Assembly (NCBI GenBank): GCA_903844645.1
Contig: CAIMUP010000119.1
Coordinates: forward strand, 1-38,056
Direction of reading: 5' to 3'
DNA: 38,056 nt
Source of the DNA: an uncultured Bacteroidota bacterium
GTDB lineage: Bacteria; Bacteroidota; Bacteroidia; AKYH767-A; JABDAW01
The translations under genes and the position numbers were made by a program. The notes under the pieces were generated by a model. It searched no databases. It saw only the letters and a program-made list of their open reading frames with translations, and was not told the origin of the DNA. Positions within the stretch are counted from its first letter, which is position 1, and each line of letters starts with the position of its first letter. This document shows positions 3,293-38,056 of the stretch, piece after piece.

Positions 3293-3502
3293 CATTTTCT
3301 CGATACGGGGAGCCACTTTCTTGACACGGGGAGCCATTCCCTCGATACGGGGAGCCATTTTCTTGATCCGGGGAGCCATTCCCTCGATACGGGGAGTCAT
3401 TCCCTCGATACAGGGAGTCATTCCCTCGATACGGGGAGTCATTCCCTTGATACGGGGAGCCATTTTCTTGATACGGGGAGCCATTCCCTTGTGTCGGGGA
3501 GC
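3293..3502. repeat. Intergenic 21-bp tandem array A2 (10 units)
   Basis: Ten contiguous units of exactly 21 bp share the core GATACGGGGAG, preceded by CATTCCCTC or CATTTTCTT. Units differ by scattered substitutions and I saw no length changes. Because 21 is divisible by three, several frames on both strands stay open and give repetitive pseudo-proteins. The last unit changes to GTGTCGGGGAGC and becomes the left arm of the terminator-like hairpin that follows. Confidence 0.95.
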
Positions 3503-7814: not shown

Positions 7815-7846
7815 CAAAATTAGGAAATTCTATACATAATGCCGAA
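7815..7846 (-). promoter_or_regulatory. Promoter of the rhomboid-EEP operon
   Basis: On the minus strand TTCG (7843-7846) is followed by 20 bp and then TAATTTTG (7815-7822), a full -7 match with correct spacing and a one-base -33 variant. The upstream edge of the -33 element abuts the first unit of array A3. Confidence 0.65.
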
Positions 7847-8098
7847 CATCATCCCCAAAAGGATTTACATCATCCCCAAAAGGATTCACATCATCCCCAA
7901 AAGGATTCACATCATCCTTAAAAGGATTTGCATCATCCCCAAAAGGATTAACATCATCCCTAAAAGGATTTGCATCATCCCCAAAAGGAGATTTATTTTC
8001 CTCAAAAGGAAAACTTTTTTCGCCAAAAGGAGATACATTACCCCCAAAAGGAAAACTTTTTTCATTAAAAGGAAAACTTTTTTTGGGCAAAAGGAAAT
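7847..8098. repeat. Intergenic 21-bp tandem array A3 (12 units)
   Basis: Twelve 21-bp steps lie between divergent genes. Units 1-6 are close copies of CATCATCCCCAAAAGGAT plus three bases. Units 7-12 keep the phase and the core AAAAGGA but change elsewhere. Most early units contain the dyad ATCC..GGAT. In unit 8 (7994-8014) both arms change together to TTTTCC..GGAAAA. Both strands have long open frames that are only products of the period. 8099-8213 holds no gene; a weak -7 match (AATCTTTG, 8215-8222) follows. Confidence 0.95.
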
Positions 8099-9568: not shown

Positions 9569-12500
9569 ATGAAAAAAGTAAACAAAATTTTAATCCTGTG
9601 CCTCGCACTGTTCATCATGATGAACGCCCAGGCACAAACCGGACCTACGGGACCAACAGGAGGAACAGGCAAAGGGTACAATGCCAAGTCTGCCTCCAAT
9701 GTAGCAGTTGGAACAGGTTCAAAGACTTTTGTAACCACCGTCGTAACCTCTACCTACGCCTATTCAGTAGGCGAGAGAGTTCGAATCATTGACTCGGTAA
9801 GTACTCCGATTTACATGGAAGGTTCGATAACAACAGTTAATGGATCGTCTTACGTTGTCAATGTAGATGTAGCAGTCGGTTCAGGTTCTTTCACTACTTG
9901 GGTAATTCAAGTTGCAGGGAATGTCGGAACATCAGGTGCAACAGGTGCTACTGGTTCGGCAGGAGCTAATGGCGCAACAGGAGCAGCAGGTACTAATGGA
10001 ACAAATGGAGCAACAGGAGCTGCCGGAACAAACGGTTCTAATGGCGCAACAGGAGCTACCGGAGCGATTGGTAATGATGGACCAGCAGGTCCAACAGGAG
10101 CAGCAGGTACAAACGGAACAAACGGTTCTAATGGAGCAACAGGAGCTACCGGAGCAGCAGGTACTAATGGTACAAACGGAACAAATGGTTCTAACGGTGC
10201 AACAGGTGCTACCGGAGCAGCAGGAGCAACAGGAGCTACTGGCGCAGCAGGAACTAATGGTACAAACGGAACGAATGGTACTAATGGAGCAACAGGTGCT
10301 ACCGGTGTTGGCTTAACAGGTCCTACCGGAGCAACAGGTCCAAGTGGAGGTCCAGTAGGTCCTACCGGTGCAGCAGGAACGAATGGTACGAATGGAACAA
10401 ACGGTACGAATGGCGCAACAGGTGCTACCGGAGCAGCAGGAACTAATGGTACGAATGGAACAAACGGTACGAATGGCGCAACAGGTGCTACTGGTCCAGC
10501 AGGTACTAATGGAACCAATGGAGCAACTGGAGGAACTGGAAATACAGGTGCTGCAGGTGCTGCAGGGAAAGGATATAATGCTCAATCCGCAACTAGTACA
10601 TTAATGGGTACTGGTTCAAAAGTATTTACAACTGGTTCATTAACCAGTACCATGGCTTATACAACAGGGGTGCGAGTAAGAGTAATTAATACTATTACCC
10701 CTACAATTTACATGGAAGGTTCCATAACAAATGTTGCTACATCTTCATATACAGTTAATGTTGATTTGGTTGTAGGTTCAGGTACGTTTGCGTCATGGGC
10801 AATTAATGTTACAGGAAATATTGGAGCAACAGGAGCAACAGGAAGTGCTGGTGCAACTGGAGCCACAGGTGCAGGATCTAATGGAGCAACAGGCGCAACA
10901 GGTGCTGCCGGAACAAACGGTGCTAATGGAGCGACAGGCGCAACAGGTGCTGCCGGAACAAATGGTTCTAATGGAGCGACAGGTGCTACAGGAGCGAATG
11001 GAAATAACGGTTCTAATGGAGCAACAGGTGCTACGGGAGCAGCCGGAACAAATGGTTCTAATGGAGCAACTGGTGCTACCGGAGCAAATGGAAATAACGG
11101 TTCCAATGGAGCAACAGGCGCAACAGGTGCTGCCGGAACAAATGGTTCTAATGGAGCAACAGGCGCAACAGGTGCTGCCGGAACAAACGGTTCTAATGGA
11201 GCGACAGGTGCTACAGGTGCAGCCGGAACAAATGGTTCTAATGGAGCGACAGGTGCAACAGGAGCTGCCGGAACAAATGGTTCTAATGGAGCGACAGGTG
11301 CTACAGGAGCTGCTGGAACAAATGGTTCTAATGGAGCGACAGGTGCTACAGGAGCGAATGGAAATAACGGTTCTAATGGAGCAACAGGTGCTACGGGAGC
11401 AAATGGAAATAACGGTTCTAATGGAGCAACAGGTGCTACCGGAGCAAATGGAAATAACGGTTCTAATGGAGCGACAGGCGCAACAGGTGCTACCGGAGCG
11501 AATGGAAATAACGGTTCTAATGGAGCGACAGGTGCTACCGGGGCGAATGGAAATAACGGTTCTAATGGAGCAACCGGAGCAACCGGAATTGGTTTAACTG
11601 GTCCTACTGGTCCATCAGGAAATGATGGCTCTGCTGGACCTACTGGTTCTGCAGGTCCAACTGGTCCTACAGGAGCTACTGGTCCAAGTGGTGGTCCTAT
11701 TGGTCCTACTGGTCTTGGTTATGGTGGTAAATCTCATACAACAGTAACGATGATAGCTCCAGGTGTAAGGACATTCACTCTTTTAACCCCTTCTCAATAT
11801 GCTTATCAACCTGGAGTAAGAGTTAGGATTACTGATTCAGCTAATACAGCAATCTATATGGAAGGTATTGATTCTTCTTATAACTCTTCAACAGGAGTTT
11901 TAATTGTTAATGTAGATTTAAGAGTTGGGTCTGGTTCATACAATTCATGGTACATAAATGTTACTGGTAATATTGGTTCTGTAGGCGCAACAGGCGCAAC
12001 AGGAAGTGCTGGTGTTGCTGGACCTACTGGTGCTGCTGGTGTTGCTGGTCCCACTGGTGCAACAGGTGTTGGAGTAGCAGGTGCAACGGGTTCTACTGGT
12101 GCAACAGGTCCATCTGGAGGTCCTGTTGGTCCTACTGGTCCTGTCGGAACAAATGGTATTAATGGAACAAACGGAACAAACGGTGCGACAGGTCCTACTG
12201 GCGCAACAGGTGCTACCGGTCCATCAGGAGGTCCTGTTGGTCCTACGGGTGCTACGGGTGCTACAGGTCCATCAGGAGGTCCTGTTGGTCCTACTGGAGT
12301 TGCTGGTCCGACAGGCGCAACAGGCGCAACTGGTTTTACTGGTCCTGGATATAATTCTTCTTCAGTACAATCTTATACAATAGCTACAGGTAACCAAACA
12401 TTTGTTCTTACCAATGGTAATTATTTCTACAATGTTGGTACCAGAGTAAGAATTTTTAATTCTCTGACAAATTACATGGAAGGCGTAGTTGCGAATTTTT

Positions 12501-14473
12501 CAGGCAATTCTCTTAATGTAACTATCGATAGAATTGTTGGTTCAGGAACATTTAATAGTTGGAATGTTCACCTTACTGGTGATGTTGGTGGTGTTGGTCC
12601 TACTGGTCCTCAAGGTCCTACTGGTCCTACAGGTGTTCAAGGTCAACAAGGCTTTACTGGTGCTACTGGTGCTGCTGGTGCTAATGGAAATACTGGTCCG
12701 ATTGGTCCTACAGGTATTGATGGACTTACTGGTCCTACTGGTGCTACTGGAACTAATGGTTCAAACGGTGCGACAGGTGCGACAGGTGCTCAAGGTCCTA
12801 TCGGTCCTACTGGTGCTACTGGTGCTACCGGATCCTTTACTACTGGCTCTGCCTTCGGACAAACACTTTATTATAATGGAACAGTTTGGACTCCTACTAT
12901 CAATCTTTATAACAATGGAACCAATGTCGGAATTGGTGTTACCAATCCATTAGAGGCTCTTGATATTAACGGAGAGGCGAATCTAAGAATAGGAGGTTCA
13001 TACAGAATTAACGATAACCGAGTTCTTAGTATTAATGGTACTCAAGATCTTTTTGTCGGCACCTATCCTTCGGCATTGTACTCTGCTTCCAATAACACCC
13101 TCATGGGTTCAGGTAGCGGTGCAGGTTTGATTACTGGTGCTTTCAATACCTTTGCTGGTGATAATAGCGGTAATTTTTCTGTTGCCGATTCTGCTAATTC
13201 TTTCTTTGGAAGTTCTGCGGGAGCGATCAATAATGGCAGTAGTTATAATACTTTCATAGGTGCCAATTCCGGAAAAAATAATGTGACCGGTTCAAGAAAT
13301 ACGTTCCTTGGTGAGGAATCAGGATTAAAGAATGCTGCCCTAAGTAATTCTAATGTGTTTATTGGTTATAAAGCTGGTTTGGCTAATTTCAAACTTGCAT
13401 CTAACAATGTTTTTCTGGGAACTATGTCGGGCAGTAATAATTTCTCCGGAAATGGAAATACCTTCCTAGGCGACAGTGCCGGGTATAGAAATATTACCGG
13501 AAATAACAACATCGCAATTGGAAAAAATGCCACTATGGCTGATTCATTAATCAACGCTATTGCGCTTGGTGCAGGTTCATTTGTGAATCAATCGAACACC
13601 ATGTCTATCGGTGGTGATGGAACTACAATTCCTTATCATCATGTGGTGATTGGAAGACCTACCACTCCGTATCAATTAGAACTTACATTGGATGCTGCTG
13701 CCAAACCAGGTACTTCTACATGGATTATTACTTCTGATGCAAGATTGAAGAAAGATGTTACAGAATTCAAAGACGGATTGAATGTTATGGAAAAAATTAA
13801 TCCTGTTTGGTTCTCTTATAATGGAAAAGGAGGGATGCCTACCGGAGATCGTTATGTAGGAATTATTGCTCAAGAAATGCAAAAAATTGCTCCTTATATG
13901 ATAAGTTCTTATAAATATAAAGACCCTAAAACTGGTGTAGAATCTGATTATTTGAACTATAATGCCAACGCTTTATTCTACATTACGGTGAATTCTATTA
14001 AAGAGCAACAAAAACAAATTCAGGCTAAAGACGCTCAAATTGCAGACCTCGGAAATCAGGTTACTAACCTTCAATCCGAAGTGAATGCACTGAAATCGCA
14101 GAGCACACAGATTGATGCGATGAAGAATCGTTTGGATGCATTCGAGAAATCATTGTCGGAATGTTGTACCAATTTCCAAACAGGTACAGGTGCTAATACC
14201 GCCGCCCCTGCTACGCCTTTCTTAGAGCAAAATCAACCAAATCCATTCAATGAAAATACTACTATTCGCTATTATATCCCTACCAATGCGAAGGGTGCGA
14301 CGGTAACGATTCATTCATTAGATGGAAAGAAATTGAATACTTTCAAGATTGATCAAACGGGCTTTGGACAAATCATCATCTCTGGCGGAACACTCCCAAC
14401 CGGAACGTATTTGTATCAATTAACAATTGACAACAAGGTGATAGATTCTAAGCAAATGATGCTGATAAAATAA
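9569..14473 (+). CDS. Secreted collagen-like fibre protein with S74 chaperone domain and T9SS sorting domain
   Basis: This 1634-residue protein has a signal peptide (1-23, ending AQAQ). Long Gly-X-Y tracts rich in GATGATG and [10 protein letters not shown] are interrupted by four related beta-domains of about 85 residues (near 35-120, 334-418, 716-801, 925-1007), each with Y..G.RVRI and YMEG. A head region (about 1091-1330) has repeats such as NTFIGANSG and NTFLGDSAG, reminiscent of trimeric adhesins. A peptidase S74 intramolecular chaperone follows, with Ser1389 in SDARLKK, and then a coiled coil (about 1477-1530). The final 84 residues are a T9SS sorting domain ([14 protein letters not shown] through [15 protein letters not shown]). 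It is probably a trimeric cell-surface fibre. The substrate of adhesion is unknown. Confidence 0.95.
10900..11590 (+). repeat. Coding minisatellite in the collagen-like region
   Basis: Near-identical in-frame units of mainly 45 bp encode [15 protein letters not shown], interspersed with a second type encoding [15 protein letters not shown]. Neighbouring units match in long stretches and differ mostly at third codon positions (GGA/GGT, GCG/GCA/GCT). This suggests recent unit exchange under selection for the Gly-X-Y pattern, and length variation between strains is likely. Confidence 0.85.
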
Positions 14474-14492: not shown

Positions 14493-14531
14493 GAAACCCC
14501 CGTTATTCGTTTAACGGGGGTTTCTTTTTTT
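14493..14531 (+). terminator. Intrinsic terminator of the fibre gene
   Basis: The 13-bp stem GAAACCCCCGTTA with TAACGGGGGTTTC encloses a 6-nt loop and is followed by seven T residues. It lies 19 nt after the stop codon. Confidence 0.93.
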
Positions 14532-14560
14532 GGGATTAAATAATCTCTATCCCCACTCAT

Positions 14561-14770
14561 GTTAGCAACACCCTCACACGTGTTGGCAACACCCTCACAC
14601 GTGTTGGCAACACCCTCACACGTGTTAGCAACACCCTCACACGTGTTAGCAACATCCTCACACGTGTTAGCAACACCCTCACACGTGTTGGCAACACCCT
14701 CACACGTGTTAGCAACACCCTCACACGTGTTAGCAACACCCTCACACGTGTTAGCAACACGCTAATGTCT
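14561..14770. repeat. Intergenic 21-bp tandem array A4 (9 full units plus one partial)
   Basis: The unit GTTRGCAACACCCTCACACG plus T repeats every 21 bp with very few substitutions (mainly A/G at position 4). It contains GTTGGCAAC, and unit junctions create the perfect palindrome ACACGTGT. The string CACCCTCACA resembles the start of the A1 unit, the only sequence link I saw between arrays. It lies between two convergent genes, so it cannot sit in a promoter. The remaining 170 bp to 14944 shows no feature. Confidence 0.95.
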
Positions 14771-21985: not shown

Positions 21986-23557
21986 CTATTTCTGGAAAAT
22001 CATCTTCTTGGTGTCAATCACCTTATTATTAATAATCAAGCTATATGAATATACCCCGCTCGAAAGATTAGTAGCTGTAACATCCAATTCACCCATTCCT
22101 GTTTCTACGATTGAAAAAACTTTTATTCGCGATCCAAACTCATCATAGAAGGCAATAATTGGATTGTTCGTATTATCCGGCACAAAGTACCTGATCTTAG
22201 TACCACCACTATTAAAAGGATTCGGTATATTTTGAAAAATCATAGGAGTGCTCCCTTCACTACTCAATTCAATCGAATGAATATTCCCAGTCCCTACTCT
22301 CTTTTCAGAAGAACCACCATCCCCATTATCCCCATCCCCACCATCACCATGTTTAATGGAATTAGGAGGAGGATTACGCTGATCACAACAATTCTGTAAG
22401 GCAATTAATTGGCTTTGCAATGCCTGAATAGTAGAATCCATTTGATGATTCGATTGAATCAACAAAGGTATAAACTCTATATAATCAACACCCTTCAGGT
22501 GCATCGGTGGGTGGATGGAATCCCCTGGCTGAACCAAATTCTTTACAGCAGTAGGAAGTACATTTTGTAAGTCCTGCGCCAATACTCCATATTCCGTGCC
22601 GCCTTTCATATACATATAACCATATTGTGCAGTATCGAAATTATATACTTTAGGATGCACTTGGTTAAGGATAGCTTGTGCATTCGTGATAGGGTGAATG
22701 TTTTGCTTAACCATAGAATCAAAAATAGAAATCAAAGCACCCGTATAAGCCAAATCCCCATCAAAATATCCTGCATAAGAAAGTACCCCAGCACCCGTGG
22801 CAGCATTGCCATACACACCGTAGTTGGTAGCAGTACCATTCGCATAACCTTGTACCCCTATGCTCGAGGTAGTGCCGTTACTCTCCCCATAAACACCCGT
22901 AGTAGTCCCGGCATCCAGAGCATAACCCTGTACACCATAGTTAGTACCCAATGCACAACTGGCGGTAGCCCTTGCACCTACATTATTAATCTTGGAATTC
23001 GTTGCAGAAAAATCTCCGCCAAAATTACTCGAATTATCATCAGCATGAACCACATCCGTAATACCCGCCACACCCACCATATCATCACCATGATTAGAAT
23101 AGTTCCCCGTCTGATAAAACCTCCCCGCATACTGATTCACATAATTAAAATCCCCAGTACCAAAGGTAGAATCCTTCACATCGAGTTTGGCTTTCAAGCC
23201 AACTGTTTCCTGATACCCAATCCCAACATCCACAGGGTTATTAGAATTATCCATCCTACTCTGACCACGAAAATAAACACTCCATTGCTCATGGTCGCTC
23301 GGTGCACCACTATACATCGGCACAATAGTATTATGCAGCAAAGGCATACCACCCCACTCTATTTTTCCGGTACTATCTTTAGTGATGGCGTTTTGTCCTT
23401 TAATAGAATTGATTAAAGAATCATGGTTTTGATAACCGGAAACAAGGAGGGGGATAACACTTGTATAATTTATACCACATGCCCATGTTGAATCATGTAA
23501 TATTGTAGTCCCGGAGGGACAATCTTTTGGTAGTAATAATAGGATAAGTAGATTCAC
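21986..23557 (-). CDS. S74-domain T9SS surface protein with degenerate cleavage site and abnormal N-terminus
   Basis: The 523-residue frame can begin only at a GTG (23557), because an in-frame TGA lies 8 codons upstream with no ATG between. The start MNLLILLLLPKDCPSG is hydrophobic but lacks a normal basic signal peptide, and no promoter lies upstream, only the hairpin after the PAP2 gene. The gene is probably 5'-truncated or has lost its start. Residues 200-268 carry short GVQGYA/GVYGE repeats. An S74-like domain (about 272-390) reads FDSMVKQNI where the fibre protein has SDARLKKDV, so the autocleavage Ser is Phe279. An Asp/Gly-rich linker (403-416) and a T9SS sorting domain (about 440-523, IPNPFNSGGTKIRYF through NKVIDTKKM) follow. 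The tail closely resembles that of the fibre protein. Confidence 0.8.
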   Translation of the reverse strand: MNLLILLLLPKDCPSGTTILHDSTWACGINYTSVIPLLVSGYQNHDSLINSIKGQNAITKDSTGKIEWGGMPLLHNTIVPMYSGAPSDHEQWSVYFRGQSRMDNSNNPVDVGIGYQETVGLKAKLDVKDSTFGTGDFNYVNQYAGRFYQTGNYSNHGDDMVGVAGITDVVHADDNSSNFGGDFSATNSKINNVGARATASCALGTNYGVQGYALDAGTTTGVYGESNGTTSSIGVQGYANGTATNYGVYGNAATGAGVLSYAGYFDGDLAYTGALISIFDSMVKQNIHPITNAQAILNQVHPKVYNFDTAQYGYMYMKGGTEYGVLAQDLQNVLPTAVKNLVQPGDSIHPPMHLKGVDYIEFIPLLIQSNHQMDSTIQALQSQLIALQNCCDQRNPPPNSIKHGDGGDGDNGDGGSSEKRVGTGNIHSIELSSEGSTPMIFQNIPNPFNSGGTKIRYFVPDNTNNPIIAFYDEFGSRIKVFSIVETGMGELDVTATNLSSGVYSYSLIINNKVIDTKKMIFQK

Positions 23558-33462: not shown

Positions 33463-33717
33463 TTAATTAATAGTAGGTAATTTAATTCGATTATTCCATT
33501 CTAACGACTTTAAAGAGGTGTCTGAAAACTTTTCAGAGGCGTCTGAAAACTTATAAGAGGTGTCTGAAAACTTATAAGAGGTGTCTGAAAACTTTTCAGA
33601 GGCGTCTGAAAACTTATAAGAGGTGTCTGAAAACTTTTCAGAGGTGTCTAAAAACTTATTAGCCACCGCCATTAGTCCTTGTTTTTCGTTTTCCATGAAT
33701 GTTATTTGGAATTCCAT
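33463..33717 (-). CDS. Small heptad-repeat ORF spanning array A6 (doubtful)
   Basis: This 84-codon frame has a non-repeat start (MEFQITFMENEKQGLMAVANKF), about seven heptads of the type FSDTSYK or FSDASEK, and a short unique end. It lies 12 nt upstream of the gene at 32779, as a first cistron would. Against it: the repeat is a 21-bp array of the kind found in five other gaps with no credible protein. The unit differences (ACC/GCC, GAA/TAT in this frame) all change amino acids, which gives no sign of protein-level constraint. No -7 element is evident before either in-frame ATG (33717 or 33696). Confidence 0.35.
   Translation of the reverse strand: MEFQITFMENEKQGLMAVANKFLDTSEKFSDTSYKFSDASEKFSDTSYKFSDTSYKFSDASEKFSDTSLKSLEWNNRIKLPTIN
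33517..33663. repeat. 21-bp tandem array A6 (7 units)
   Basis: Seven exact 21-bp units begin GGTGTCTGAAAACTT or GGCGTCTGAAAACTT. There are two alternative second halves, and each is a dyad: one unit type contains TCTGAAAACTTTTCAGA (perfect 8-bp arms around C), the other CTTATAAG (perfect 8-bp palindrome). The types follow no simple alternation. Confidence 0.95.
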
Positions 33718-33801: not shown

Positions 33802-36800
33802 TTATTGAACGCTTAGCTTTTGTTTGCTTGTTTCGCCTTCGCGTTCAAGGACTACGATATAGATTCCTTTGGCGAGATTGCTCAAATCCATTTCGTACTG
33901 ATTTTCTCCTTCGGTCGTTGTTCCACTGAAGTTCAACACGTTTCTTCCGGTAAGGTCGGTTACGTGAACTGCGAATGGATCATTTTCTTTTTCAGCAGAG
34001 AATCTAACCGTTGCATGTTCTGATGCTGGGTTTGGATACACATTGAATGTTTTCTCAACCACTGCGCCTCTTGGTCCGATAGTGGTGAAGGTATTCGTTG
34101 CTGAATAGTTCGATGTATTTGTCGAAGAAGCGTTACAGTTGCTACGTACATGCCATTCGTAGGTAGTATTCGCTGCCAACACGTTGTTACCCGTGAATAC
34201 GCGGTGATGACCACCTGTAGAACCGAGAATAGCGAATGAAGACCAAACGGTAGAGCCTACGACGCGGTATTGAACCGTGTAGCTGTATGCGCAAGGAACA
34301 GAATCCCAAGAGATGGTAGCGGAGTGGTTCGCACCGATATTAGAAACTGTTTCGCCTGTTGGGGTCTGACAATCTTTGGTAATAACTTGGGTAGCGGTGC
34401 TTACACAACCATTAGCTGCAGTAGCAGTAATGGTATAAGTAGCAGCCACGGTTACGATGATTCTGTTCGTGGTATTTCCATTAGACCATAAGTAGGTGCT
34501 GAATGTACCGGAAACTGTCAGTGTATCGCTTTGAGCACCGTAGTTACTTGGACATACATTCGATGAAGGAGCCAATACGATGGTTGCAGCAGTATTTGCT
34601 GGCTGCGTAATGGTAGCCGATGCAGTGATGGTACAACCGTTGAAGTCAGTAACTGTTACGGTATAAGTTCCGGCAGCTAATGCGGTACGGTTTTGAGTGG
34701 TTGCACCGCCAGTCCAGCTATAGCTGTAAGGTGTTACACCACCGCTCCTTGTTAAGGTAATCGTTCCGTCAGTTGCGCCATTACAAGATACATTGGTTTG
34801 GGTCGTAGAAGCCGCCAAAGCAGTAGGTTGTGTAACGCTTACGTTCGCTGTGCTCGAACAACCATTCACATCTTTCACTACTATTGTATAATTACCGGCA
34901 GCCAATCCTGTAAAGGTATTTGAAGACTGGTGCGTACCGTAGTTATCATCAGAATAAGTGTAAGCAGGTGTACCACCAGTGGCGATGATCGTGATGCTTC
35001 CGGTGCTGTTTCCATTACATAATACATTACCGATAGTTGTTGTGAAAGTTACGCTGCTGGATGCAGTAATGTTGATAGTAGAAGTTCCTGTACAACCATT
35101 TACATCCTTAACAGTAACCGTATAGTTTCCTGCATTCAACCCGCTAAAGGTATTTGAAGATTGGAATATGTTACCATCCACAGAATAAGTATAACCTGGA
35201 GTTCCTCCACTTGCTGTAATCACATCCGATCCACCTGTACAACCGTTACCGTTGGTAACATTGTTTGTCATGGTGATAGCAGTATTTTGAGTTAGGGTAA
35301 CTACTGTTGCAGCACTTGTGCAACCATTGTTATCTTTCACAACGATAGTATAAGAAGTAGCAGCTAAACCGGTAAAGGTTGCATTACTTTGGTAGTTACC
35401 GCCATTGTTCTTAGAGTATGTATAAGAACCAGCACCGCCAGAACCTGTTACCGTGATAGAACCGGTAGAAGCACCATTACAATTAACATTTACCTGCGCA
35501 GTAGTGAATGTTACAACAGAAGGATTGTTAATAGTTACCGCAGAAGCAGAACTTACACAACCATGAGCATCTTTCACAATCACAGAATAATTACCGGCGG
35601 CTAATCCAGAGAATACTGCACTACCTTGGTAGTTACTTCCGCCATCCACAGAATATGTGTAAGGAGCAGTACCGCCAGCACCTGTTACGGTAATCGTTCC
35701 ATCGGTACTGTTATGGCAAGTTACATCTGTAAAGATTACTTGAGATATTGTAACAACAGAAGGTTGGGTAACTGTAACCACTGCAGCAGCACTGGTACAA
35801 CCATTAACATCTTTCACGATACAAGTATAACTACCAGCCGCTAAGCCAGAGAATACATTTGAAGATTGATAACTACCTCCATTGTTATCTGAATAAGTAT
35901 AAGGGCTATTACCACCAGTTGCCGTAATTGTAATGCTTCCTGAACTTCCACCATTACAGCTTACGCTAACAGTAGAAGATGTAAATGTTACAGCAGTAGC
36001 ATTCGTGATAGTAACATCAGCCGGAACACTTGAACAACCATTAGCATCTGATAAGATGACGGTATAAGTTCCTACAGGTAAGTTGTTAAATACATTAGAC
36101 GATTGTGTAGAATTGCCACCATCATCAGAATATAAGTAAGTTGGAGTACCACCAGCAGCAGTAACTGTTATACTACCATTTCCTGTACAACCAACATTAA
36201 TTTGAGTAGTTGTAAATGTTACAGGAGCAGGTTCAGAAATTACTATTGTAGTCGAACTTGTACAACCATTAGCATCTTTCACCCAAACACAATACGAACC
36301 TGCGACTAAGTTATTAAATACAACACCAGGTTGGTAGGCTCCACCGCAATTATCTGAATATGTATATCCACTGGCACCACCCGTTGCATGAACTGTGATA
36401 CGACCGTTATTACCACCACTACAACTTACATTGATGTGCGTTGTTCCTGAAGTGCTAATAGCAGTAGGTTGAGTAATAGTTACTGTCGATGAAGAAGTAC
36501 ATCCACTATTATCTTTCACAACAACAGTATAAGAACCTGCAGCTAAACCAGTGAACTGGTTTGAACCTTGATAGCTTGAACCATTATTATCAGAATATGT
36601 ATATCCTCCTGTTCCGCCATTAGCAGTGATTGTAATGTTGCCTGTACTTCCGCCATTACAAGAAACATCTGTTCTGTTGATTGTAATTCCAATTGCCGTC
36701 GGTTGAGCAACCGTAACATTAGAACTTATTGTACAACCATTAGCATCTTTCACAACCACCGAATAAGAATTAGCAGTTAATGCAGTGAAAGAATTTGAAG

Positions 36801-38056
36801 ATTGATAATTTCCACCACCGTTATTAGAGTATGTGTAAGGACTTGTTCCTCCAGATGCCGTAACTGAAATTGCACCGTTATTTCCACCATTGCATGTTAC
36901 ATTAGTTACACTGCTAGAGAACGAAACAACTGTTGGTTGTGTAATAGTAACATTGGTTGATATTGTACTTGTACATCCATTAGCATCTGTAACTTTTACA
37001 GTGTATGCACCAGCAGCTAATCCTGTAATTGGGGAAGATGAGAATGGATAAGTTACACCACCATTATCAGAATAAGTATAAGGACTTATGCCACCAGAAG
37101 CAGCTATTGAAATTGATCCTGAATTATTATTATTACAAGTCAAATCAGCGTGTGTAACAGTAAATGTAACAGAGGTAGGTTGAGTGACAGTAACATTAAC
37201 AATTGCGCTTAAACAGTTATTGCCGTCCTTAACACTTATTGGATAAGTTCCAGGAGCCAATGAAGCAAACACACCAGAACCACCATAATTAGTGTTATTA
37301 TCCGAATAAGTAAATCCACCACCTGTTCCACCTGAACCTGTAACAACTATTTGACCATTCGATCCACCATTACATTGCACATTAGTGACAACTGTAGATA
37401 GAGTAACGACAGTAGGAGTTGTAATTGTTACAGTGCTACTTATTGTACAACCATTAGCATCTTTGAGGACAATTGAATAAGCACCACCTGTCAAGTTAGC
37501 AAATAATGATGAAGGCTGATACGAAATACCACCATCATTAGAATATAAATATGTTGGTGTCCCACCAGTAGCTGAATTTACAGATATACTGCCATTGTTG
37601 TTACTATAACATGTAGTAACATTTACTTGAGATGTTGAATAACTCAAAGCGGTAGGTTGAGATAAAGTAATTGTGTTTAGACTTGTACAACCATTACCAT
37701 CTGTAAGAGTTAAATTATAAGTTCCCGCAATTAAATTACTCGGGCTTTGAGCTGTAGAAGTAAAACTATTAGGCCCAGTCCAATTAAATGCATAAACAGG
37801 AGCTCCACCGCTGTAGCTTAAGGTTATTGAACCATTATTTCCTCCATTACAACTAATGTTATATCCACCAACATAAGTGGAAGCAACGACTCCTGAAGTT
37901 AAAGCGGTAGGTTGCGACAAGGTAATGCTTGCTATACTTGAACAACCATTTGCGTCAATAACTGTTACTGTATATGCACCTGCTGCCAAACCACTCGGTG
38001 ATTGAACAGTTGAGGTATAACTATTTGGACCTGTCCAATTATAATTATAAGCAACC
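33802..38056 (-). CDS. Giant SprB-repeat surface protein with T9SS sorting domain (5' end outside window)
   Basis: The frame is open to the window edge and the last bases still encode repeat (AYNYNWTGPNSYTS), so about 1418 residues are the C-terminal part of a larger protein. At least 14 complete SprB-type repeats of 70-80 residues are visible. Each has C.GG..GSI.V.A.GG..PYTYS, a QSSN.F.GL segment and AAGSYTVVVKD.NGC; paired Cys recur in each. After them come an Ig-like domain (VCPSNYGAQSDTLTVSG), a fibronectin III domain (TISWDSVPCAYSYTVQYR) and a T9SS sorting domain (FNVYPNPASEHATVRFS, LAKGIYIVVLEREG). SprB of Flavobacterium johnsoniae is a mobile gliding adhesin. Here a surface adhesin role is likely; gliding is not shown, as no gld genes are in the window. 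Confidence 0.93.
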   Translation of the reverse strand, partial: VAYNYNWTGPNSYTSTVQSPSGLAAGAYTVTVIDANGCSSIASITLSQPTALTSGVVASTYVGGYNISCNGGNNGSITLSYSGGAPVYAFNWTGPNSFTSTAQSPSNLIAGTYNLTLTDGNGCTSLNTITLSQPTALSYSTSQVNVTTCYSNNNGSISVNSATGGTPTYLYSNDGGISYQPSSLFANLTGGAYSIVLKDANGCTISSTVTITTPTVVTLSTVVTNVQCNGGSNGQIVVTGSGGTGGGFTYSDNNTNYGGSGVFASLAPGTYPISVKDGNNCLSAIVNVTVTQPTSVTFTVTHADLTCNNNNSGSISIAASGGISPYTYSDNGGVTYPFSSSPITGLAAGAYTVKVTDANGCTSTISTNVTITQPTVVSFSSSVTNVTCNGGNNGAISVTASGGTSPYTYSNNGGGNYQSSNSFTALTANSYSVVVKDANGCTISSNVTVAQPTAIGITINRTDVSCNGGSTGNITITANGGTGGYTYSDNNGSSYQGSNQFTGLAAGSYTVVVKDNSGCTSSSTVTITQPTAISTSGTTHINVSCSGGNNGRITVHATGGASGYTYSDNCGGAYQPGVVFNNLVAGSYCVWVKDANGCTSSTTIVISEPAPVTFTTTQINVGCTGNGSITVTAAGGTPTYLYSDDGGNSTQSSNVFNNLPVGTYTVILSDANGCSSVPADVTITNATAVTFTSSTVSVSCNGGSSGSITITATGGNSPYTYSDNNGGSYQSSNVFSGLAAGSYTCIVKDVNGCTSAAAVVTVTQPSVVTISQVIFTDVTCHNSTDGTITVTGAGGTAPYTYSVDGGSNYQGSAVFSGLAAGNYSVIVKDAHGCVSSASAVTINNPSVVTFTTAQVNVNCNGASTGSITVTGSGGAGSYTYSKNNGGNYQSNATFTGLAATSYTIVVKDNNGCTSAATVVTLTQNTAITMTNNVTNGNGCTGGSDVITASGGTPGYTYSVDGNIFQSSNTFSGLNAGNYTVTVKDVNGCTGTSTINITASSSVTFTTTIGNVLCNGNSTGSITIIATGGTPAYTYSDDNYGTHQSSNTFTGLAAGNYTIVVKDVNGCSSTANVSVTQPTALAASTTQTNVSCNGATDGTITLTRSGGVTPYSYSWTGGATTQNRTALAAGTYTVTVTDFNGCTITASATITQPANTAATIVLAPSSNVCPSNYGAQSDTLTVSGTFSTYLWSNGNTTNRIIVTVAATYTITATAANGCVSTATQVITKDCQTPTGETVSNIGANHSATISWDSVPCAYSYTVQYRVVGSTVWSSFAILGSTGGHHRVFTGNNVLAANTTYEWHVRSNCNASSTNTSNYSATNTFTTIGPRGAVVEKTFNVYPNPASEHATVRFSAEKENDPFAVHVTDLTGRNVLNFSGTTTEGENQYEMDLSNLAKGIYIVVLEREGETSKQKLSVQ

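What the first reader, a model, noticed from the sequence alone, without database searches (positions are those of the whole stretch)
9569..14473. Collagen-like fibre combines an S74 self-cleaving chaperone with a T9SS tail
S74 domains of phage tail spikes trimerise the fibre and then cut themselves off before a Ser. Here Ser1389 and the S-D-x-R-x-K pattern are intact, but the T9SS sorting domain lies beyond. If cleavage occurs, the sorting signal and chaperone would be lost together and the collagen part released or held otherwise. Order of secretion, trimerisation and cleavage is then an open question.
Basis: partly seen in the sequence, partly recalled or inferred. Interest (0 to 1): 0.65.

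Follow-up and report, generated by a model that had tools for sequence, protein, structure and literature searches.

The report
Self-cutting collagen fibre with secretion tag
A bacterium carries a phage-like collagen fibre whose built-in trimerising, self-cutting domain sits just before the tag that takes the protein to the cell surface; the same layout occurs in dozens of related bacteria with the cutting residues preserved, which suggests fibres that free themselves from their own delivery tag.

Summary
ORF 9569-14473 encodes 1634 aa: signal peptide, four collagen blocks alternating with four phage-type beta modules, a stalk and repeat head, a Peptidase_S74 domain with T1388|S1389 and K1394 intact, a 68-residue helix, and a T9SS type A CTD. 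It is not a one-off. A survey using a profile that left out the Ser/Lys columns gave 45 non-redundant S74-CTD proteins. Ser is kept in 44 and Lys in 45; the exception is a truncated gene in this same window. The four most conserved columns (K1394, G1431, S1389, D1390) are the four residues that mutagenesis showed to matter for MYRF self-cleavage. In secreted S74 proteins with nothing upstream to cut, Ser is lost in 4 of 8. AlphaFold/Foldseek matches the S74 part to the MyRF cleavage domain and the tail to CTDs of T9SS cargo and PorU. I infer that the CTD takes chains to the surface, S74 trimerises them, and cutting frees the fibre from a C-terminal part that stays with the T9SS/A-LPS machinery, as MYRF frees its N-terminal trimer from a membrane-held part. 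No paper in the held library describes the pairing. Order of steps and fate of the fibre are untested. New variant of a known kind.

The parts
9569..14473 (+). whole gene, 1634 aa
9569..9637 (+). Sec signal peptide, residues 1-23, ...MNAQA|QTG; type I-like, no lipobox cysteine
   Evidence: sequence; inference
9668..9916 (+). beta module 1 (residues 34-116)
   Evidence: AF2 pLDDT 83 and matches to phage 'Collagen triple helix repeat' proteins
9917..10567 (+). collagen Gly-X-Y block 1 (117-333, with short interruptions)
10568..10813 (+). beta module 2 (334-415)
10814..11713 (+). collagen block 2 (416-715)
11714..11965 (+). beta module 3 (716-799)
11966..12340 (+). collagen block 3 (800-924)
12341..12595 (+). 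beta module 4 (925-1009)
12596..12838 (+). collagen block 4 (1010-1090)
12839..13108 (+). stalk (1091-1180) with a 'NVGIGvtNP..aLDInG'-type segment shared by many S74 proteins
13109..13618 (+). repeat head (1181-1350), 'NTFxGxxSGxxN' repeats resembling trimeric-adhesin (YadA-type) heads
   Evidence: sequence; resemblance only, no family match in this protein
13730..13735 (+). predicted scissile bond T1388|S1389
   Evidence: Pfam model starts at Ser1389; T5 pb1 cleaves T1263|S1264
13733..13963 (+). Peptidase_S74 / ICA domain (1389-1465); dyad S1389 + K1394, with D1390 and G1431
13964..14167 (+). 68-residue helix (1466-1533), the presumed trimeric coiled coil
   Evidence: AF2; profile matches to coiled coils
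14162..14167 (+). C1532-C1533, the only cysteines of the mature protein, at the very end of the helix
14168..14218 (+). linker (1534-1550) with two T|G sites that fit the published PorU motif T/E/D/N|G/A/S
   Evidence: the motif is weak
14219..14470 (+). T9SS type A C-terminal domain (1551-1634)
14493..14524 (+). intrinsic-terminator-like hairpin (13 pairs, T run) just after the stop codon
21986..23557 (-). neighbouring S74-CTD gene, 5'-truncated, no signal peptide, cleavage Ser replaced by Phe: the only Ser loss among 45 S74-CTD proteins

Best explanation
This is a phage-derived collagen fibre turned into a cell-surface or extracellular protein. Step 1 (inferred from the signal peptide): Sec exports the chain. 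Step 2 (CTD shown by model and fold; use inferred): the CTD directs it through the T9SS, whose sortase PorU and translocon SprA are encoded in this genome. Step 3 (inferred): C-terminal helices and S74 domains bring three chains together, C1532-C1533 may lock them by disulphides, and the collagen zips up from this end, as procollagen does from its C-propeptide. Step 4 (competence strongly supported, event not shown): once trimeric, S1389/K1394 cut before S1389. The fibre then leaves a C-terminal fragment (S74, coil, and either the CTD or a PorU-made A-LPS link) that stays with the export/attachment machinery. Export before cutting is the most likely order, because the dyad and the CTD are kept together across many proteins. 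Whether the freed fibre is shed or held non-covalently is open.
For: (1) The dyad is under constraint in the CTD-bearing class. With a search profile lacking the Ser/Lys columns (A1), Ser is kept in 44 and Lys in 45 of 45 non-redundant S74-CTD proteins, which are mostly 20-39% identical to the window protein over S74-CTD. K1394, G1431, S1389 and D1390 are the four most conserved columns. MYRF S578A and K583A abolish cleavage, D579A and G626A markedly reduce it. (2) The single Ser loss is in a gene remnant without its N-terminal half or signal peptide. (3) Natural control: secreted S74 proteins of about 140-160 aa with nothing to cut off have lost Ser in 4 of 8. (4) The CTD is functional-looking: S74 73%, coil 71%, CTD 74% identity between orthologues against 57% for the head; dN 0.19-0.20, dS 1.0 or more. 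(5) AF2 pLDDT 85.5: S74 matches MyRF ICA 7dc3 (Foldseek 6.3e-5; VIA Z 9.5, rmsd 2.5, 122 aligned); the CTD matches T9SS substrate CTDs 8glk_D and 8gl8_D, PorU 6za2, mirolase CTD 8qb1. (6) T9SS present: PorU 1266.7 bits, SprA 2599.3 bits, at least 150 CTD matches. (7) The CTD label changes at least 3 times on supported branches of the S74 tree, about 19 on the best tree, so the pairing arose or was lost repeatedly. (8) More S74-CTD proteins with intact dyads in named organisms, e.g. Flavilitoribacter nigricans, Parabacteroides distasonis, Aureispira anguillae.
Against: No cleavage, secretion or localisation data exist for any member that I could find. The upstream Arg (S-14) that helps form the oxyanion hole in endoNF and T5 is Asp here and is not conserved in the class, though MYRF cuts without it. 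A published T9SS scheme has substrates folding in the periplasm, where S74 could trimerise and cut too early. The CTD is divergent and scores only just above the cut-off. Trimerisation was not modelled.
Confidence: 0.5

Rival explanations
1. S74 cuts in the periplasm soon after trimerisation. The CTD-bearing trimer then carries the fibre through the T9SS by non-covalent grip, or the fibre stays inside.
For: S74 domains cut autonomously in E. coli and yeast; T9SS substrates are drawn as folding in the periplasm; CC at the coil end would be oxidised there.
Against: After cutting, the T5 chaperone must dissociate and its interface is weak and hydrophilic. A trimer would have to pass SprA as one body. 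Selection to keep a CTD that is cut off before use would be hard to explain.
Confidence: 0.15
2. S74 is only a trimerisation knob here. No cut happens in vivo, and PorU alone matures the protein, leaving body-S74-coil attached to A-LPS.
For: No upstream Arg sensor; a PorU-type site is present between coil and CTD.
Against: Ser and Lys are conserved as strictly as in S74 proteins without a CTD, the four top columns are those needed for cutting, and Ser is lost where nothing lies upstream.
Confidence: 0.2
3. Cutting occurs at the surface but the fibre stays on the cell by another contact (lectin-like beta modules, head, or lasting grip of the S74 hairpins), so cutting is a maturation step that exposes the fibre end, as in T5 pb1.
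For: In T5 pb1 removal of the chaperone unmasks receptor binding; many modules are available for binding.
Against: No second anchor was found: no lipobox and no transmembrane segment after the signal peptide (sequence).
Confidence: 0.15

Closest known systems
Phage S74/ICA tail fibres and spikes (endoNF, T5 pb1, S16 gp37, GA-1 neck appendage)
   Same: S74 fold, Ser-Lys dyad at +5, coiled coil after S74; collagen and beta modules like those of phage collagen fibres
   Different: phage chaperones end with the coil; here a signal peptide and a T9SS CTD frame the fibre and the coil is longer (68 residues against about 24 in T5 pb1)
MYRF / MrfA
   Same: S74 in the middle of the protein, same four essential residues, C-terminal piece carries the membrane attachment; best fold match
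   Different: MYRF has a transmembrane segment and releases a transcription factor; here a bacterial secretion CTD and a fibre
T9SS type A cargo
   Same: Sec signal plus C-terminal beta-sandwich CTD; PorU and SprA in the genome
   Different: has its own protease between body and CTD, so it could leave the CTD without PorU
Bacterial collagen-like adhesins (Scl1/Scl2, Lcl)
   Same: long Gly-X-Y blocks
   Different: no LPXTG or Lcl C-terminus; scores are below those models' cut-offs
Trimeric autotransporter adhesins (YadA, EmaA, Ata)
   Same: repeat head and trimeric logic; the Aureispira S74-CTD relative scores against these models
   Different: no YadA membrane anchor was reported by Pfam; S74 plus CTD occupy that place

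Membership tests
Peptidase_S74 / ICA | sequence match over the curated cut-off | tested here: met
   44.7 bits against 22
Peptidase_S74 / ICA | Ser-Lys dyad, S and S+5 | tested here: met
   S1389, K1394
Peptidase_S74 / ICA | S74 fold | tested here: met
   AF2 and Foldseek/VIA match to 7dc3; weaker match to 3gw6
Peptidase_S74 / ICA | upstream Arg at S-14 (endoNF, T5; not required in MYRF, so not defining for the whole family) | tested here: not met
   Asp1375 here and no basic residue at -14 in the 47 CTD+ proteins; MYRF cuts without it
Peptidase_S74 / ICA | trimer formation and self-cleavage | not testable with these tools
   needs the protein
T9SS type A cargo | CTD model over the cut-off at the extreme C-terminus | tested here: met
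   28.1 against 23; Pfam's CTD model silent
T9SS type A cargo | beta-sandwich CTD fold | tested here: met
T9SS type A cargo | host has T9SS translocon and sortase | tested here: met
T9SS type A cargo | T9SS-dependent secretion | not testable with these tools
   needs mutants and proteomics
Bacterial collagen-like protein | long Gly-X-Y tracts | tested here: met
   678 residues in tracts of five or more triplets; Pfam 3e-81
Bacterial collagen-like protein | triple helix formed | not testable with these tools
   needs the protein
Scl/Lcl collagen-like adhesins | whole-protein score over the equivalog cut-off | tested here: not met
   290.9 against 325 (SclB), 228.9 against 500 (Lcl), 216.6 against 400 (SclA)
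Trimeric autotransporter (YadA) | YadA-type membrane anchor domain | tested here: not met
   not among Pfam matches at E<=1; the C-terminus is a T9SS CTD

The most novel reading that the evidence does not exclude
Bacteroidota have a general class of T9SS-delivered trimeric fibres with a built-in release protease. The CTD takes each chain to the surface, S74 senses correct trimerisation there and cuts, and only well-assembled fibres are shed, while a disulphide-locked S74-coil stub stays behind on PorV or A-LPS. This would be an autonomous bacterial counterpart of the procollagen C-propeptide and a PorU-independent way for T9SS cargo to leave the cell.
Probability: 0.35. Interest if true: 0.78.

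Novelty: new variant of a known kind. Interest (0 to 1): 0.6.

Why it matters
Two systems with opposite demands meet in one chain: a self-cutting chaperone and a C-terminal address label behind it. The sequence record says both are kept, so T9SS export and S74 cutting must be ordered. The review read here says it remains to be unravelled how PorU selects cargo to be released or attached; built-in S74 cutting offers a testable alternative to PorU for cargo release. It would also give a bacterial secretion-linked counterpart of MYRF and of procollagen trimerisation, and useful functions for proteins now called 'tail fiber domain-containing protein'. A gut commensal relative of 292 aa (P. distasonis WP_005863685.1) makes the test small and practical.

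Tried and rejected
Literature searches for S74 with T9SS, Bacteroidetes/Bacteroidota or 'tail fiber domain-containing protein', and for collagen-like with T9SS, gave no papers. Of the 24 papers naming Peptidase_S74, the 15 listed concern mostly phages, plus eCIS and polinton-like viruses. Only open-licence papers are held, so this is weak evidence of absence.

'The window neighbour shows S74 without Ser in a working CTD protein' was rejected: it is truncated inside the first S74 of a two-S74 relative and has no signal peptide. Re-anchored dyad counts were set aside as biased, since the anchoring favours S and K; strict counts are used. CC-CTD association: naive Fisher p 4e-12, but a test on independent pairs has no power, so it is not claimed as correlated evolution.

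Beta module against phage records by tblastn: one module gave none, another one weak match; the relation appears by fold and PHROGs. Its PDB matches are middling and not used. VIA rows for the whole model are filled by the CTD sandwich fold, including complement proteins; these show a common fold, not kinship. Synteny: the orthologue's contig shares no other gene with the window.
Full report
WHAT IS THERE. The ORF at 9569-14473 (+) encodes 1634 aa and ends 20 bases before a strong terminator-like hairpin at 14493-14524. Its order of parts, read from the sequence and domain searches, is: signal peptide 1-23; four collagen blocks (117-333, 416-715, 800-924, 1010-1090; 678 residues in Gly-X-Y tracts of five or more triplets) alternating with four copies of a roughly 85-residue beta module; stalk 1091-1180; repeat head 1181-1350; Peptidase_S74 from Ser1389 (44.7 bits against a cut-off of 22); a 68-residue helix 1466-1533; a short linker; a T9SS type A CTD (TIGR04183 28.1 bits against 23). 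The motif T1388|S1389-D-A-R-L-K1394 has the same spacing as T5 pb1 T1263|S1264...K1269 and MYRF S587...K592.

ORIGIN OF THE PARTS. The beta module, predicted at pLDDT 83 from nine copies in two orthologues, matches domains of 'Collagen triple helix repeat' proteins of uncultured Caudovirales phages (TM up to about 0.85, best E 1.3e-7). PHROGs tail and tail-fibre families cover the collagen/module region. The S74 part, as a profile, matches S16 gp37 (8.6e-22), MYRF (6.9e-18), two phage tail fibres and the GA-1 neck appendage. So the fibre is built of phage-fibre parts between a signal peptide and a secretion domain.

NOT A ONE-OFF. In the window's order 26 of 34 genomes carry S74, with 1-7 matches each. 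A profile of the S74 body without the Ser and Lys columns (A1) found matches in 104 of 392 genomes of the phylum. ORFs were rebuilt from 200-odd loci. Counting only hits that need no re-anchoring, there are 45 non-redundant S74 proteins with a CTD and 120 without one but with an upstream body. A further 20 or so, all with intact dyads where the site could be read, came from named records, mostly Saprospiraceae but also Flavilitoribacter nigricans DSM 23189. Parabacteroides distasonis WP_005863685.1 and Aureispira anguillae WP_264793687.1 have the same layout and pass the TIGR04183 cut-off. NCBI labels them 'tail fiber domain-containing protein'. The CTD label changes at least 3 times on well-supported branches of an S74 tree and about 19 times on the best tree. 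That tree has few columns, so exact numbers are soft.

IS THE PROTEASE ALIVE? Among the 45, Lys is kept in 45, Ser in 44, Asp(+1) in 43, and Gly1431 in 45. These are the four most conserved columns of the domain. Mutagenesis of human MYRF, read here, found S578A and K583A to block processing and D579A and G626A to reduce it markedly; the profile alignment places the conserved Gly on MYRF's GVIAQEV glycine. The only Ser loss (Phe) is in the neighbouring gene of this window, 21986-23557 (-). Its ORF begins inside what corresponds to the first S74 of a two-S74 relative and lacks a signal peptide, so this looks like decay. Among proteins without a CTD the one strict exception, L249, is a misalignment (SDRQYK is present, shifted); outside the strict set one domain (second of L150) has lost both residues. 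Conversely, secreted S74 proteins of about 140-160 aa in which the signal peptide directly precedes S74, so that there is nothing to release, have lost Ser in 4 of 8 (one split ORF left out). These are related to each other, so the number of independent losses is small. Taken together the dyad looks maintained for cutting, not for folding. Conservation is not activity: no member has been assayed as far as I could find.

IS THE CTD ALIVE? Between the two orthologues S74 (73%), coil (71%) and CTD (74%) are the best-conserved parts; the head is 57% and the stretch just before the cut 37%. dN is 0.19-0.20 with dS of 1 or more for S74 and CTD. The AF2 model of residues 1344-1634 (pLDDT 85.5) matches CTDs of T9SS substrates in translocon complexes (8glk_D, 8gl8_D), PorU (6za2), mirolase CTD (8qb1) and PorZ (5m11). 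The genome has PorU (1266.7 bits), SprA (2599.3 bits) and at least 150 CTD matches. The score of this CTD is modest and Pfam's model is silent.

HOW IT MOST LIKELY WORKS. Known: S74 cuts only as a trimer, autonomously, in E. coli, yeast and animal cells, and MYRF's C-terminal part stays in the membrane while the N-terminal trimer leaves. Known: T9SS cargo is recognised by its CTD, crosses SprA, is passed by PorV to PorU, which removes the CTD and attaches the rest to A-LPS or lets it go. Inferred: in this protein both act. If S74 cut before export, the CTD would be useless to the fibre and should decay; it has not. So chains most likely reach the surface first, trimerise through coil and S74, and then cut, leaving the fibre free of its C-terminal stub. 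There is no lipobox and no other membrane segment, so a freed fibre has no covalent anchor. Whether it is shed or held by its modules is undecided. The arrangement is reminiscent of procollagen, whose C-propeptide nucleates the trimer and is cut off (general knowledge).

A SECOND FEATURE. The window protein has only two cysteines after the signal peptide, C1532-C1533, at the last turn of the helix. A CC pair between S74 and CTD occurs in 19 of 47 S74-CTD proteins, against 1 of 135 S74 proteins without a CTD and about 1 of 82 CTD proteins without S74, and again in Aureispira. Surrounding sequences differ and the label changes at least 4 times on supported branches. An interchain disulphide lock of the trimer is the obvious guess, like the CC knot of type III collagen (general knowledge). 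It lies on the C-terminal side of the cut, so it would lock the stub, not the fibre. Shared ancestry of a coil-CC-linker-CTD cassette could explain part of the pattern; the independent-pairs test had no power.

VERDICT. The parts and the dyad are real; the layout is widespread and apparently undescribed in the papers searched; the mechanism is a well-supported inference without direct test. New variant of a known kind (S74 self-cutting fibres, T9SS cargo).

Noticed in passing
14162-14167; L330 and other S74-CTD loci: CC pair at the end of the S74 coil, just before the CTD linker, in 19 of 47 S74-CTD proteins and almost nowhere else tested; possible interchain disulphide lock.
   Followed up: partly
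21986-23557 (-): Second S74-CTD gene in the window, 5'-truncated relative to a two-S74 protein, cleavage Ser changed to Phe, CTD below cut-off (20.7 bits).
   Followed up: yes
L017:1-2256 and L020:1018-3183 (G002:C291): One protein with two S74 domains in tandem, both with intact Ser and Lys, then a CTD; two cuts would release an internal segment.
   Followed up: no
L138, L139, L140, L141, L143, L151, L152, L251: Stand-alone secreted S74 proteins of about 140-160 aa (signal peptide + S74 + coil) with nothing upstream; half have lost the cleavage Ser. Possible chaperones acting in trans.
   Followed up: partly
1-158, 3299-3489, 7846-8083, 14560-14760, 33507-33657: Several tandem arrays with different units but the same 21-bp period, e.g. 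TGTTAGCAACACCCTCACACG just downstream of the fibre gene.
   Followed up: no
33802-38055 (-): Large protein with SprB repeats and a T9SS CTD (Pfam), a second surface-adhesin candidate in the window.
   Followed up: no
CTD-negative S74 loci: Most S74 proteins of the phylum have a hydrophobic, signal-like N-terminus but no T9SS CTD and rarely a lipobox; how they would reach the surface, if they do, is unclear.
   Followed up: no
BFVD entry A0A6J5L910: A protein of an uncultured Caudovirales phage is named 'Secretion system C-terminal sorting domain', hinting that CTDs also sit on phage genomes.
   Followed up: no
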